Below are positions 33,659 through 57,143 of a stretch of 64,000 nt of DNA, piece by piece. Below the pieces are notes generated by a model that saw only the letters and a program-made list of their open reading frames with translations, was not told the origin of the DNA and did not search any database. A program made the position numbers and the translations under genes. How positions within the stretch are numbered: the stretch's first letter is position 1; every line of letters starts with the position of its first letter. This DNA comes from Brevundimonas sp. LM2 (GTDB taxonomy: Bacteria; Pseudomonadota; Alphaproteobacteria; Caulobacterales; Caulobacteraceae), in the NCBI RefSeq assembly GCF_002002865.1, contig NZ_CP019508.1:868001-932000 (forward strand), read 5' to 3'.

Positions 33659-33936
33659 GTGGAGTTCGAATGGGATGAGGCGAAGGCGCTGAGCAATGCG
33701 GCGAAGCATGGGGTGACCTTCGAGGAGGTACTGGAAGTCTTCGCTGATCCTGACCGTCGTGATGCGCCGTCGGGCCGGTCTTCGGACCAAGAGGCGCGAC
33801 GCTATGCGACGGGCGGGTCGGCCAACGGCTGCTGACGGTCATTTACACGCTTCGCTCGGGGCGGGTCCGATTGATCTCGGCCCGCCATGCCAGCGCAAAG
33901 GAGAGACGCACATGGCGATTGTCCGAAGAACGCTAG
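33659..33936 (+). pseudogene. brnT: BrnT-type toxin, broken by a one-base deletion
   Basis: Frame 1 from GTG 33659 reads MEFEWDEAKALSNAAKHGVT, continuing to RRYATG near 33810, then meets a premature TGA. Shifting by one base restores RVGQRLLTVIYTLRSGRVRL and ISARHASAKERRTW to TAG 33934. Together they make the whole 92-residue RelE-fold BrnT ribonuclease, so one base is missing around 33805-33815. The 3' end overlaps the antitoxin start by 25 bases, the normal BrnT-antitoxin layout. As given, only 57 residues would be made. A sequencing error is possible. Confidence 0.8.
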
Positions 33937-34289
33937 ACCTGAACAATCTCAAAGGCCTCAGCGCAGAAACAGAGCGCCGCCTCGACGCCATGACCGAGGC
34001 GGAGATAGAGGCCAACGCCCTGTCCGATCCCGACAATCCGCCGTTGACCGATGATGAACTTCGGAGGGGATGGCATGGCCGGGAGATCCGGTTGGCGCGG
34101 GAAGCGACGGGTCTGTCGCAAGCCGCATTCGCCGAACGCTACGGCCTGACCCTCGGCCGACTGCGCGATCTGGAGCAGGGTCGGTCCTACGATGGCGCTG
34201 TGACCGCCTACTGCATGGCGATCGGTCGCGATCCTGACGGAGTGGCCCAAGCGGTGGCCCATCTGGTTGATCGCGACAGAGCGGCTTGA
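33912..34289 (+). CDS. HTH antitoxin of the BrnT module
   Basis: 125 residues, intact, from ATG 33912 with AAAGGAGAG upstream. Residues 35-60 (EIEANALSDPDNPPLTDDEL) carry the acidic/Pro motif found in BrnA-like and XRE-type antitoxins; residues 64-118 are a Cro/C1-type helix-turn-helix (LAREATGLSQAAFAERYGLT). It should autorepress the module and neutralise BrnT. Its TGA overlaps the TTG start of the histidine kinase at 34286, keeping kinase translation coupled. Confidence 0.82.
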   Translation: MAIVRRTLDLNNLKGLSAETERRLDAMTEAEIEANALSDPDNPPLTDDELRRGWHGREIRLAREATGLSQAAFAERYGLTLGRLRDLEQGRSYDGAVTAYCMAIGRDPDGVAQAVAHLVDRDRAA

Positions 34290-35710
34290 GCGGCGACAGC
34301 GGATTGCGCCTCCCGACCCTCTTTCGCCGCACGCCCTTTCGGCTGACGCTGCTGTTCCTGGCGCTGTTCGCGGCGGCGGCCAGCGCGATCCTGGCCTATG
34401 TCTATGTGGCCTCGGCGGCCGAGGCGCAGGCGAAGGCGGAGGCCGATGTCGCGGGCGAGCTGCAGGCCCTGCGCGGGGTCTATGACAGCCGCGGTTTCGA
34501 CGCGCTGAATATGGCGGTCATCGACCGGACCCTGACGCGCAGCGCCTTCGTCTATCGACTGATGGATGAGAAGGGCGCCTTCATCACCGGCAGCCTCAGC
34601 GAGACGCCGTTCGACGCGGAGGCCCGGGACGGGGACTGGGTCACCTTCACCTTCACCGATACGGACGCCGAGGGGCGGGTGATCCGGCCCCAGGTGCGGG
34701 CCGTGACGGCGCGACTCTCGGGCGGGGAGACGCTGATCGTTGGCGAGAGCCTGGGCGACACCGAGGCCTATCTGAGCCGCCTGACCCAGGCCCTGTGGGC
34801 GGCGATGGGCATGGTGCTGCTGCTGGGCCTGGCCGGCGGGCTGCTGGTCAGCCGCAATCTGGAACGGTCGATGGGCCGGCTGAACCGCGTCGTGACGGCG
34901 GTGCAGGACGGCGACCTGAAGGCGCGGGTGCCGGTCCGGGCGACCGGCGACGAGCTGGACGAGCTGGGGCGCGGGCTGAACGACATGCTGGACCGGCTGG
35001 AGGGGTCGATGGCCTCGATCCGCCATGCCGGCGACGCCATCGCCCACGACCTGCGCTCGCCCCTGACGCGGATGCGGGCCAAGCTGGAGGTGGCCCTGAT
35101 CGACGCCGACAACGGCAAGGTCTCGGGCGTCGAGGCCCTGGGCATCGCCCTGGACGAGGCCGACACCCTGCTGAAGACCTTCAACACCGTGCTGGCCATC
35201 GCCCGGCTGCAGGCTGCGGCGGGGCGGATTCCCGATGCGGCGGTGTTCGATGCCGCCGAGCTTGCTGCCGACATGGCCGAGCTGTACGAGCCCGCGGCCG
35301 AGGACAAGGGGCTGGAATTCTCGGCCGAGATCGAACGCGGCCTGATGATCGAGGGCGGACGACCCTTCCTGGCCCAGGCCCTGGCCAACGTCATCGACAA
35401 CGCCATCAAATACACGCCCACCGGCGGGGCGGTGATGCTTCGGGCCCGGCGGCGCTCGTCGGGCGAGGTCGAGTATTCGGTCACAGACACGGGACCCGGC
35501 GTGCCGGAGGCGGATCGCGGGCGGGTGGTCGAGCGGTTCGTGCGGCTGGACAACAGCCGCACCGAGGCGGGATCGGGCCTGGGCCTGTCCCTGGTCGGCG
35601 CGGTCATGGAGGCGCACATGGGCCGCATCCAGCTGGACGAGGGACCGGGAGAATACGGCGGCTTCGGCCCCGGTCTGCGCGTCGCCCTGATCCTGCCGCC
35701 CGCGCCCTGA
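34286..35710 (+). CDS. Sensor histidine kinase, partner of the 32946 regulator
   Basis: 474 residues read from TTG 34286, overlapping the antitoxin TGA. Membrane segments at residues 18-40 and 168-190 flank a periplasmic domain; a HAMP linker follows (RNLERSMGRLNRVVTAVQDG). The H box is DAIAHDLRSPLTRM, with N box NVIDNAIKYTPTG, G1 DTGPGVPEAD and G2 SGLGLSLVGAVM. The TTG start is unusual; GTG overlapping the regulator stop was probably the ancestral start before the module arrived. Confidence 0.88.
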   Translation: MSGDSGLRLPTLFRRTPFRLTLLFLALFAAAASAILAYVYVASAAEAQAKAEADVAGELQALRGVYDSRGFDALNMAVIDRTLTRSAFVYRLMDEKGAFITGSLSETPFDAEARDGDWVTFTFTDTDAEGRVIRPQVRAVTARLSGGETLIVGESLGDTEAYLSRLTQALWAAMGMVLLLGLAGGLLVSRNLERSMGRLNRVVTAVQDGDLKARVPVRATGDELDELGRGLNDMLDRLEGSMASIRHAGDAIAHDLRSPLTRMRAKLEVALIDADNGKVSGVEALGIALDEADTLLKTFNTVLAIARLQAAAGRIPDAAVFDAAELAADMAELYEPAAEDKGLEFSAEIERGLMIEGGRPFLAQALANVIDNAIKYTPTGGAVMLRARRRSSGEVEYSVTDTGPGVPEADRGRVVERFVRLDNSRTEAGSGLGLSLVGAVMEAHMGRIQLDEGPGEYGGFGPGLRVALILPPAP

Positions 35711-55608: not shown

Positions 55609-56639
55609 CCGACGACCGCATCATCTCGCCCCAGCCCGCGCCCGGCGAACAGTACGATCGCGCCCTGCGGCCCCAGACCCTGTCGGAGTTCGTCGGCCAG
55701 GAGGCGGCCAAGGGCAATCTGAAGGTCTTCATCGACGCGGCGCGCGGGCGCGGCGAGGCGCTGGACCACGTCCTGCTGTTCGGCCCGCCGGGGCTGGGCA
55801 AGACCACCCTGGCCCAGATCGTGGCGCGCGAGCTGGGCGTGGGCTTTCGGGCCACCTCGGGGCCGATCCTGGCCAAGGCGGGGGACCTGGCCGCGATCCT
55901 GACCAATCTGGAACCGCGCGACGTCCTGTTCATCGACGAGATCCACCGCCTGGCCCCGACGGTGGAGGAGATCCTGTATCCCGCCATGGAGGACCATGTG
56001 CTGGACCTGATCATCGGCGAAGGGCCCTCGGCGCGGTCGGTGCGGATCGACCTGGCCCCCTTCACCCTGGTCGGGGCCACGACCCGGGCAGGCCTGCTGG
56101 CCACGCCGTTGCGCGACCGGTTCGGCATCCCCCTGCGGCTGGAGTTCTACACCCCGGCCGAACTGGTGCGGGTGATCACCGGGGCGGCGCGCAAGATGGG
56201 GGCCCCGATCAACGACGAGGGGGCGGGCGAGATCGCCTCCCGGTCGCGGGGCACGCCGCGCGTGGCGGGCCGGCTGCTGCGGCGGGTACGGGACTTCGCT
56301 GAGGCCGAGGGGTCTCCCGTGATCAACCGGATCGTGGCGGCGCGGGCCCTGAGCCGGCTGGAGATCGACGAGGCCGGTCTGGACGCCAACGACCGGCGCT
56401 TCCTGAAGGCCCTGATCGAGAACTACGGCGGCGGGCCGGTCGGCATGGACACCCTGGCGGCGGCGATCGCCGAGGCGCGCGATGCGGTCGAGGACGTGAT
56501 CGAACCCTATCTGCTGCAGCAGGGCTTCATCATGCGCACCCCGCGTGGCCGCATGGCCTGCGCCAAGGCCTATGCGCACCTGGGGCTCAGCGAGCCGCCC
56601 AAGCCGGCGGGGGCGGGACAGGCAGGCCTGTTCGAGTGA
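55605..56639 (+). CDS. ruvB: RuvB branch-migration ATPase
   Basis: 344 residues from GTG 55605. AAA+ motor with Walker A GPPGLGKT (60-67), Walker B FIDEIHRL, sensor GATTRAGLL and a C-terminal winged helix (YLLQQGFIMRTPRGRMA). Drives branch migration with RuvA. Its TGA overlaps the GTG of the damaged BrnT toxin (GTGA at 56636), so that module was inserted at the very end of ruvB. Confidence 0.96.
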   Translation: MTDDRIISPQPAPGEQYDRALRPQTLSEFVGQEAAKGNLKVFIDAARGRGEALDHVLLFGPPGLGKTTLAQIVARELGVGFRATSGPILAKAGDLAAILTNLEPRDVLFIDEIHRLAPTVEEILYPAMEDHVLDLIIGEGPSARSVRIDLAPFTLVGATTRAGLLATPLRDRFGIPLRLEFYTPAELVRVITGAARKMGAPINDEGAGEIASRSRGTPRVAGRLLRRVRDFAEAEGSPVINRIVAARALSRLEIDEAGLDANDRRFLKALIENYGGGPVGMDTLAAAIAEARDAVEDVIEPYLLQQGFIMRTPRGRMACAKAYAHLGLSEPPKPAGAGQAGLFE

Positions 56640-56911
56640 GCGTCGCCTTCGACCCCGAGAAGGACGCAGCAAACCGCGCCAAGCACGGCGTGTCGCTGAG
56701 TCTGGCCGAGGTCGGAGACTAGACCCAAGCCTATATCGCCATCGATGATCGAAGGGATTATAATGAGGTCCGTTGGTACGGCTATCTCCCGATCGCCGGT
56801 CGATTGCATGTCGTGGTCTATACTGAGCGGGACGAGGCCACACGGATAATCAGTTTGCGCCGGGCCAATCCGCGCGAGGTCAGAAAATATGAGCAACTCC
56901 GGAGTGTCTGA
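56636..56911 (+). pseudogene. brnT: BrnT-type toxin with internal amber codon
   Basis: From GTG 56636 to TGA 56909 the single frame reads MSVAFDPEKDAANRAKHGVS then SLSLAEVGD, TAG at 56720-56722 (codon 29), then TQAYIAIDDRRDYNEVRWYG and continues through VVVYTERDEATRIISLRRAN. The full 91-codon length is exactly BrnT-like. In the family a Trp commonly follows Asp at this point, so TGG to TAG by one transition is likely. Overlaps ruvB and the antitoxin. Confidence 0.83.
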
Positions 56912-57143
56912 CATCGTCGAGGACATCGACAATCCGGAATTGACCGATGCGGACATTGCCCGGATGCGCCCGGCGCGCGAAGTGATGTCGCCGGCAGCCT
57001 ATGCCCGCATTATCGCTGCAAGCGAGGTGAGCCTGAGCCTGTCGCCCACCACAATTGCCGCCTTCGCCGAAGACGGTGGCGACTGGAAAGAGCGGATGGT
57101 GGCGGCACTGGACGAGGCGGCGCGCAAGAAGCGGGCGGCCTGA
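56889..57143 (+). CDS. brnA: BrnA-like antitoxin
   Basis: 84 residues, intact, ATG 56889 inside the 3' end of the toxin frame. Acidic N-terminus (IVEDIDNPELTDADIARMRP) and the closing DWKERMVAALDEAARKKRAA match the BrnA ribbon-helix-helix antitoxin. It should neutralise BrnT; with the toxin cut at codon 29 it has no local target. Confidence 0.82.
   Translation: MSNSGVSDIVEDIDNPELTDADIARMRPAREVMSPAAYARIIAASEVSLSLSPTTIAAFAEDGGDWKERMVAALDEAARKKRAA

What the first reader, a model, noticed from the sequence alone, without database searches (positions are those of the whole stretch)
33659..57143. Three toxin-antitoxin modules each with an intact antitoxin and a singly broken toxin
BrnT at 33659-33936 lacks one base, ParE at 54105-54445 lacks one base, BrnT at 56636-56911 has an amber codon at position 29. 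In each the rest of the toxin reads well after one repair, so the losses are recent. The three antitoxins are whole. A fourth pair (Phd/PIN, 59790-60436) is intact. This suggests selection, or mutation bias, towards disarmed toxins with retained antitoxins that may act as anti-addiction proteins or as regulators. One base losses could also come from assembly error, but the amber codon cannot come from an indel error.
Basis: partly seen in the sequence, partly recalled or inferred. Interest (0 to 1): 0.8.

Follow-up and report, generated by a model that had tools for sequence, protein, structure and literature searches.

The report
Recently disarmed toxins, antitoxins still whole
Three toxin-antitoxin gene pairs in a Brevundimonas bacterium have lost the toxin but kept the antidote, which is the ordinary order of decay; one of them sits behind a DNA-repair operon that looks switched on by DNA damage, a linkage shared by some related species.

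Summary
In a complete Brevundimonas genome, BrnT at 33659-33936 is split between two frames, ParE at 54105-54445 likewise, and BrnT at 56636-56911 has a stop at codon 29; the three antitoxin frames are open. Toxin lost, antitoxin kept is the order decay should follow and is documented elsewhere (PMC7192599, PMC7280312). Outside the window this genome's BrnT/ParE toxins look broken no more often than in the genus (1 of 10 against 6 of 141). The codon-29 lesion is recent: the remnant keeps 22 of 22 columns invariant among 15 relatives, and a 92%-identical environmental fragment is uninterrupted. No special selection on the antitoxin was seen. The better find is the setting: brnT-brnA follows ruvB, overlapping its stop, in 18 of 101 ruv loci of the genus (window included), and a Caulobacter-type LexA box lies at the ruvC start in 97 of 97 readable loci. 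So ruvCAB-brnTA is probably an SOS operon carrying a toxin-antitoxin pair, like dinB-yafNO of E. coli. At that site the toxin is clearly damaged in 2 of 18 loci, perhaps 3; no locus keeps an open toxin without its antitoxin.

The parts
33659..33936 (+). brnT1 toxin remnant, split between two frames near 33800-33832
   Evidence: PF04365 1-51 and 47-77 in different frames; pieces scored apart
33912..34289 (+). HTH (Xre-type) antitoxin of brnT1, open frame; its end overlaps or abuts the histidine kinase start
   Evidence: PF13560; 108 of 120 held rows (the protein itself and its 119 listed relatives) carry DNPx[LWIMF]T
32946..33617 (+). response regulator gene upstream of the brnT1 insertion
   Evidence: tblastn, 89.6-98.7% identical beside the kinase in 29 relatives, one of them matched in part only
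34286..35710 (+). histidine kinase gene; start now TTG (34286 or 34304), where G079, G060 and G117 have ATG
53857..54108 (+). RHH-like antitoxin (ParD position), open
   Evidence: weak PF01402, below cut-off
54105..54445 (+). parE toxin remnant, frame change near 54140-54152; last codons lie in the ruvC leader
   Evidence: PF05016 14-88; leader shared with relatives
54449..54463 (-). LexA (SOS) box, GTTC-N7-GTTC on the minus strand, at the ruvC start
   Evidence: position; 97 of 97 readable ruvC loci, 7 sites elsewhere in 691,068 bases; motif as in Caulobacter (PMC9578287, passages)
54455..54994 (+). ruvC (start may be at 54467)
   Evidence: tblastn to relatives
54991..55608 (+). ruvA
   Evidence: tblastn to relatives
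55605..56639 (+). ruvB, open
   Evidence: full-length open match
56636..56911 (+). brnT2 toxin remnant; start overlaps the ruvB stop; stop codon at codon 29 (56720-56722)
56889..57143 (+). brnA2 antitoxin, open
   Evidence: PF14384; 17 relatives at the same site
59790..60436 (+). Phd/PIN pair, intact
   Evidence: PF02604 and PF01850; same place in G060 at 69% and 52% identity, Phd also in G117 at 68%

Best explanation
These are three type II toxin-antitoxin modules in the first stage of ordinary decay. Each is patchy or lineage-specific at its place: brnT1-HTH lies inside a response regulator-histidine kinase pair, parDE between a hemerythrin-like gene and ruvC, and brnTA2 is joined to the end of ruvB. 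The toxin can be lost first without harm, while the antitoxin cannot be lost as long as the toxin works; so a one-step toxin knock-out beside a whole antitoxin is the expected first stage. The codon-29 lesion is recent. The antitoxins are whole mainly because too little time has passed, and, for the HTH antitoxin, possibly because the start of the downstream kinase now depends on it. The ruvB-linked module is probably transcribed with ruvCAB under LexA control, so its toxin would have been made during DNA damage, which may add to the pressure to lose it. Shown: lesions, synteny, overlap, conserved LexA box, conserved remnant. Inferred: co-transcription, SOS induction, cost, order of events.
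For: Lesions in toxin frames only. At the ruvB site 18 of 101 loci (17 of 100 fetched relatives plus the window) carry brnT-brnA, with the brnT start overlapping the ruvB stop in 18 of 18. Toxin clearly damaged in 2 of 18 (window; L165 lacks four residues of a conserved motif), with open antitoxins; a third, L117, has a replacement in a conserved column, of unknown effect; 0 of 18 have an open toxin without antitoxin. In 2 of the 83 loci without brnT a brnA tail is left (L130, L138). Remnant conserved, uninterrupted relative known. brnT1-HTH absent from the RR-HK junction in 29 of 29 relatives examined, the best-scoring 29 of 130. In G079, G117 and G060 a long gene fills the place before ruvC and no parDE matched. 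Same phenomenon in print: orphan antitoxins, median nine per Klebsiella strain (PMC7192599, passages); defective toxin genes up to about 50% and 30% in some TA families (PMC7280312, passages). LexA box 97 of 97.
Against: Taken as a whole this genome has more broken-looking BrnT/ParE toxins than its genus (4 of 13 against 6 of 141, p = 0.005), and all three BrnT/ParE loci of the window are broken (p = 0.014 given 4 of 13), although both tests include the loci that prompted the question. The frameshifts could be sequencing errors; no reads are held. For BrnT1 the nearest proteins are at most 55% identical, for ParE the nearest in the genus at most 44% over most of the length (the large protein database was not searched with ParE), so their age cannot be judged. 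81 of the 83 loci without brnT show no relic on the right strand, so stepwise decay is not the only way the module disappears.
Confidence: 0.7

Rival explanations
1. The antitoxins are kept by selection as cross-acting antidotes: BrnA2 and the HTH protein share a DNPxLT segment and could buffer the two intact BrnT toxins of the same genome or incoming BrnT modules (anti-addiction).
For: DNPx[LWIMF]T in 108 of 120 rows of the HTH antitoxin family (shuffled proteins 0.025%), and NPE[LW]T in 18 of 18 ruv-linked BrnA, window included; two intact brnTA loci in the genome, whose antitoxins carry a related DAPEL segment (by eye). Orphan antitoxins as anti-addiction genes are discussed in PMC7192599 (passages).
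Against: No constraint on BrnA beyond that on the dead BrnT; no close antitoxin relatives on plasmids: BrnA 4 records at 34-35%, HTH 56 records all under 60% (the eight listed 34-47%), ParD none; both intact BrnT loci have their own BrnA-like gene. The 120 HTH rows are homologues, so the motif count is not independent, and that the segment binds the toxin is a guess.
Confidence: 0.12
2. One or more lesions are sequencing or assembly errors and the modules work.
For: The remnant looks as constrained as a working gene and a 92%-identical environmental fragment is uninterrupted. Two single-contig genomes of the genus, G101 and G108, show ruvB itself in two pieces, probably from such errors.
Against: Genome 99.94% complete in one contig; comparison with seven relatives covered about 20.8 kb of the window and gave three frame-change candidates, all of which I judged by eye to be shadow frames; three errors all in toxin frames would be a coincidence.
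Confidence: 0.13
3. An antitoxin is kept for its place in an operon: translation of the HTH antitoxin drives the downstream histidine kinase, and brnA2 is a passive tail of the ruv operon.
For: The kinase start is TTG at 34286 (inside the HTH stop) or 34304, where G079, G060 and G117 have ATG behind the response regulator.
Against: Applies to one of the three modules; kinase expression was not measured; parD and brnA2 have no such role.
Confidence: 0.2

Closest known systems
E. coli dinB-yafN-yafO-yafP operon (SOS-induced type II TA)
   Same: TA pair behind a DNA-repair gene, SOS induction coming from that gene's promoter (PMC2814082, passages; PMC9578287, passages); here expected, not shown
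   Different: here ruvCAB instead of dinB and BrnT/BrnA instead of YafO/YafN; toxin gene first, its start overlapping the ruvB stop; yafNO also has a promoter of its own, none is evident here (one inside ruvB is not excluded); toxin dead in this strain
BrnT/BrnA type II toxin-antitoxin modules
   Same: toxin first, antitoxin gene overlapping, Pfam PF04365 and PF14384
   Different: no intergenic space of its own behind ruvB; the first module of the window has an HTH instead of a BrnA antitoxin
Decaying chromosomal TA systems (ccdO157 in E. coli, xre-res in pseudomonads) and orphan antitoxins of Klebsiella
   Same: toxin gene defective or missing, antitoxin kept (PMC7280312, passages; PMC7192599, passages)
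   Different: other families; here three modules within 24 kb
Caulobacter higBA, a DNA-damage-inducible TA of a related genus
   Same: TA tied to DNA damage (title seen in the reference list of PMC9578287; the paper was not read)
   Different: HigBA, not a tail of ruvCAB (recalled)

Membership tests
BrnTA type II TA module (brnTA2) | BrnT domain over its full length | tested here: met
   PF04365 1-77, 73 bits, with one stop inside
BrnTA type II TA module (brnTA2) | adjacent BrnA antitoxin, overlapping gene | tested here: met
   PF14384, 56889-57143
BrnTA type II TA module (brnTA2) | open toxin gene, as needed for a working toxin | tested here: not met
   stop at codon 29: the locus is a remnant; the toxin frame is open in 17 of 17 relatives at this site
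BrnT module with HTH antitoxin (brnT1) | BrnT next to an HTH protein of a family that accompanies BrnT elsewhere | tested here: met
   BrnT pieces beside 4 of the 12 HTH relatives fetched (L054-L057; the other 8 are weaker HTH matches); a 210-aa database protein carries both domains (P0094)
ParDE | ParE toxin domain next to an RHH antitoxin | tested here: inconclusive
   PF05016 over its cut-off; antitoxin only weakly RHH, below cut-off; the same pairing is seen at 12 of 13 loci fetched by the antitoxin
SOS (LexA) operon | LexA box at the promoter | tested here: met
   97 of 97 readable ruvC loci
SOS (LexA) operon | induction by DNA damage, co-transcription of brnTA with ruvCAB | not testable with these tools
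   no expression data; C. crescentus ruvCAB is reported induced (PMC9578287, passage)
Anti-addiction antitoxin | neutralises the toxin of an incoming related module | not testable with these tools
   no close plasmid relatives

The most novel reading that the evidence does not exclude
In Brevundimonas a BrnT/BrnA module rides at the end of the LexA-controlled ruvCAB operon as a DNA-damage-induced growth brake that is repeatedly gained, swapped and disarmed toxin-first, while the retained antitoxins, which share a DNPxLT toxin-binding segment across two DNA-binding folds, go on to buffer the genome's other BrnT toxins.
Probability: 0.13. Interest if true: 0.6.

Novelty: new member of a known kind. 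Interest (0 to 1): 0.36.

Why it matters
The broken toxins themselves are a known stage of decay. The ruvCAB-brnTA arrangement matters more: it gives a natural series of one TA module at one address behind a DNA-repair operon, present, disarmed, reduced to a tail or absent across about 100 species, which would make it possible to test whether SOS-linked toxins are useful or merely tolerated, and in which order such modules die.

Tried and rejected
Selection on the antitoxin: pairwise NG86 dN/dS on the window and its three nearest relatives with this module type; synonymous sites near saturation (dS about 0.6-2.8), nothing in favour of BrnA. Clustering of broken toxins as a trait of this genome: not borne out outside the window. 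Mobile carriers: no close relatives on plasmids. Spread of the ruvB link in the family: of 348 genomes drawn, 25 had a match; 17 of the matches lay next to RuvB (the window and the relic of G033 included), all in this genus, and the relic of G020 had been seen there; the other 7, one of them in this genus, had no RuvB within the fetched flanks of about 1.5 kb or less. Simple descent: presence needs 15 changes on a RuvA+RuvB tree of 100 rows (quick method, 35 of 96 inner branches open). A first LexA-box count gave 23 of 97 because the stretch was cut before the start codon; the recount with it gave 97 of 97. Clustering of genes behind ruvB was blurred by shadow frames. The counts 4 of 51 (BrnT, 100 other genomes) and 2 of 90 (ParE, 40 other genomes) were made by hand from the rows; partial matches counted as broken may be contig ends, and replacements are not counted. 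In one search the window, L117 and L165 were left out of the reference set before invariant columns were counted; in the same leave-one-out test 5 of the 15 other copies deviate at one or two columns (L067, L074, L142, L153, L158), so the single replacement of L117 is no proof of damage. A draft of this report called it the third lesion and called the environmental fragment near-identical; it is identical at 49 of 53 residues. For this I lowered the best explanation from 0.72 to 0.70. My checkpoint notes say 18 relatives, 19 loci and 81 module-less loci; the right numbers are 17 relatives, 18 loci with the window, 83 without brnT.
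Full report
Where we are. The window is G000:C1:868001-932000 of a 3,564,519-base, single-contig genome, 99.94% complete. Its genus is Brevundimonas: the two named loci found with the BrnA antitoxin are a B. subvibrioides metagenome assembly and Brevundimonas sp. SH203, and their contig lengths equal those of G126 and G002, which the genome search lists as the same genus.

The observation. It is right. BrnT1 matches PF04365 in two frames, positions 1-51 and 47-77. ParE matches PF05016 positions 14-88 in a frame other than that of its start (start read by eye). 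BrnT2 matches over its full length with one TAG. The partner genes are open: an HTH protein (PF13560), a weak ribbon-helix-helix protein, and BrnA (PF14384). The Phd/PIN pair is intact and sits at the same place in relative G060. About the last 15 codons of ParE are ruvC leader DNA that relatives share.

Is it more than chance? In this genome 4 BrnT loci and 9 ParE matches, one of them below the cut-off, were found; 4 of these 13 look broken, 3 in the window and one outside (2457191, with an open gene in antitoxin position). In 100 other genomes of the genus 4 of 51 BrnT loci, and in 40 other genomes 2 of 90 ParE matches, look broken (counted by hand). 4 of 13 against 6 of 141 gives p = 0.005, but includes the loci that raised the question; without the window it is 1 of 10 against 6 of 141, p = 0.39. 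So the excess is local, post hoc, and small in number.

How old are the lesions? For BrnT2, recent. The remnant, with X at the stop, keeps 22 of 22 columns that are invariant in 15 copies of relatives (the window, L117 and L165 left out of the reference). Its dN/dS against three relatives is 0.08-0.20, against 0.18-0.27 among those three; for BrnA the figures are 0.17-0.33 and 0.13-0.25 (ratios worked out). Among 22 database hits one short environmental fragment is identical at 49 of 53 residues and uninterrupted at the site. For BrnT1 and ParE the nearest relatives found are too far to judge.

Where do the modules sit? (1) brnT1-HTH lies between a response regulator and its histidine kinase. 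At this junction 29 of 29 relatives examined, the best-scoring of 130, have no such insertion; the sister genome G079 has a short gap. The kinase in the window starts with TTG at the end of the HTH gene, while G079, G060 and G117 have ATG. (2) parDE lies between a hemerythrin-like gene (family assigned by eye) and ruvC; in G079, G117 and G060 a long gene resembling a peptidase (by eye) fills the place, while other relatives carry a distant parDE beside the hemerythrin-like gene. (3) brnTA2 follows ruvB.

The ruvB address. I fetched 100 ruv loci out of the 130 other genomes of the genus. In 17 of them, and in the window, brnT and brnA follow ruvB, and the brnT start codon overlaps the ruvB stop in 18 of 18. 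All 17 relatives have an open brnT frame. One (L165) lacks four residues of a conserved motif; one (L117) has a replacement in a column invariant in the 15 others, but 5 of those 15 also deviate at one or two columns when each is left out in turn, so its effect is unknown. So the toxin is clearly damaged in 2 of 18, perhaps 3, each time with an open antitoxin, and no locus has an open toxin without antitoxin. In 2 of the 83 loci without brnT a tail of brnA remains. Presence is patchy, 15 changes on a RuvA+RuvB tree, and the window's ruvB end looks like that of G117 rather than of its sister G079, which suggests exchange by recombination. In 348 genomes drawn from the family, the module next to ruvB was seen only in this genus.

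Control by DNA damage. The Caulobacter SOS box is GTTC-N7-GTTC, and ruvCAB is SOS-induced in C. crescentus (PMC9578287, passages). This motif lies at the ruvC start in 97 of 97 loci that could be read and 7 times elsewhere in 691,068 bases; in the window alone, two sites against one expected by base composition would mean nothing, so the case rests on its conservation, part of which may come from the overlap with the ruvC start. Since brnT has no intergenic space of its own behind ruvB, the module is most simply read as the tail of an SOS operon. The parallel is dinB-yafNO of E. coli, where SOS induction of the TA pair comes from the dinB promoter (PMC2814082, passages). Transcription was not tested. 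In the held library BrnT with ruvB gave one paper, unrelated by its title; ruvCAB with toxin-antitoxin and SOS gave only the review above; a search with Brevundimonas returned 101 papers of which the eight listed do not hold that word, so it tells little. I found no report of this linkage in these three searches.

What it most likely is. Ordinary toxin-first decay of three patchy TA modules, one of which rides in a probable SOS operon. Losing the antitoxin first is harmful, losing the toxin first is not; hence whole antitoxins beside dead toxins are the expected intermediate, and are common elsewhere (median nine orphan antitoxins per Klebsiella strain, PMC7192599, passages; defective toxin genes up to about 50% and 30% in some families, PMC7280312, passages). 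The idea that the antitoxins now act as antidotes or regulators is open. In its favour: both BrnT-linked antitoxins share a DNPxLT segment although their DNA-binding families differ, and two intact BrnT remain in the genome. Against: no extra constraint, no close plasmid relatives.

Sequencing error remains a rival. The conserved remnant and the uninterrupted relative would fit it too; the completeness of the genome, and the lack of a credible frameshift in about 20.8 kb of compared window DNA (three candidates judged by eye to be shadow frames), speak against it. Only reads can settle it.

Noticed in passing
54449-54463 and L067-L166: Caulobacter-type LexA box at the ruvC start in 97 of 97 readable loci of the genus; 7 further sites in 691 kb.
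   Followed up: yes
33912-34289, 56889-57143, P0027-P0145: The HTH antitoxin and BrnA share a DNPx[LW]T segment before unlike DNA-binding domains, as if one toxin-binding piece had been joined to two folds.
   Followed up: partly
G000:C1:2457191-2457445 (L009): A fourth broken-looking toxin outside the window: ParE match with one TAG near its start, beside an open gene in antitoxin position.
   Followed up: partly
L189, L190, L193 (RR-HK junction of G060, G117, G034): The junction that holds brnT1-HTH in the window holds 121-144 bp stretches with arms of repeated GAGTGGC / GCCACTC-like units in these three relatives; six others have 446-467 bp there.
   Followed up: no
56610-56640 against L067 and L069: The 3' end of ruvB in the window resembles G117, not the sister G079, suggesting that the module came in by recombination through ruvB.
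   Followed up: partly
G101 and G108: ruvB appears as two separate matches in two single-contig genomes, probably assembly errors.
   Followed up: no
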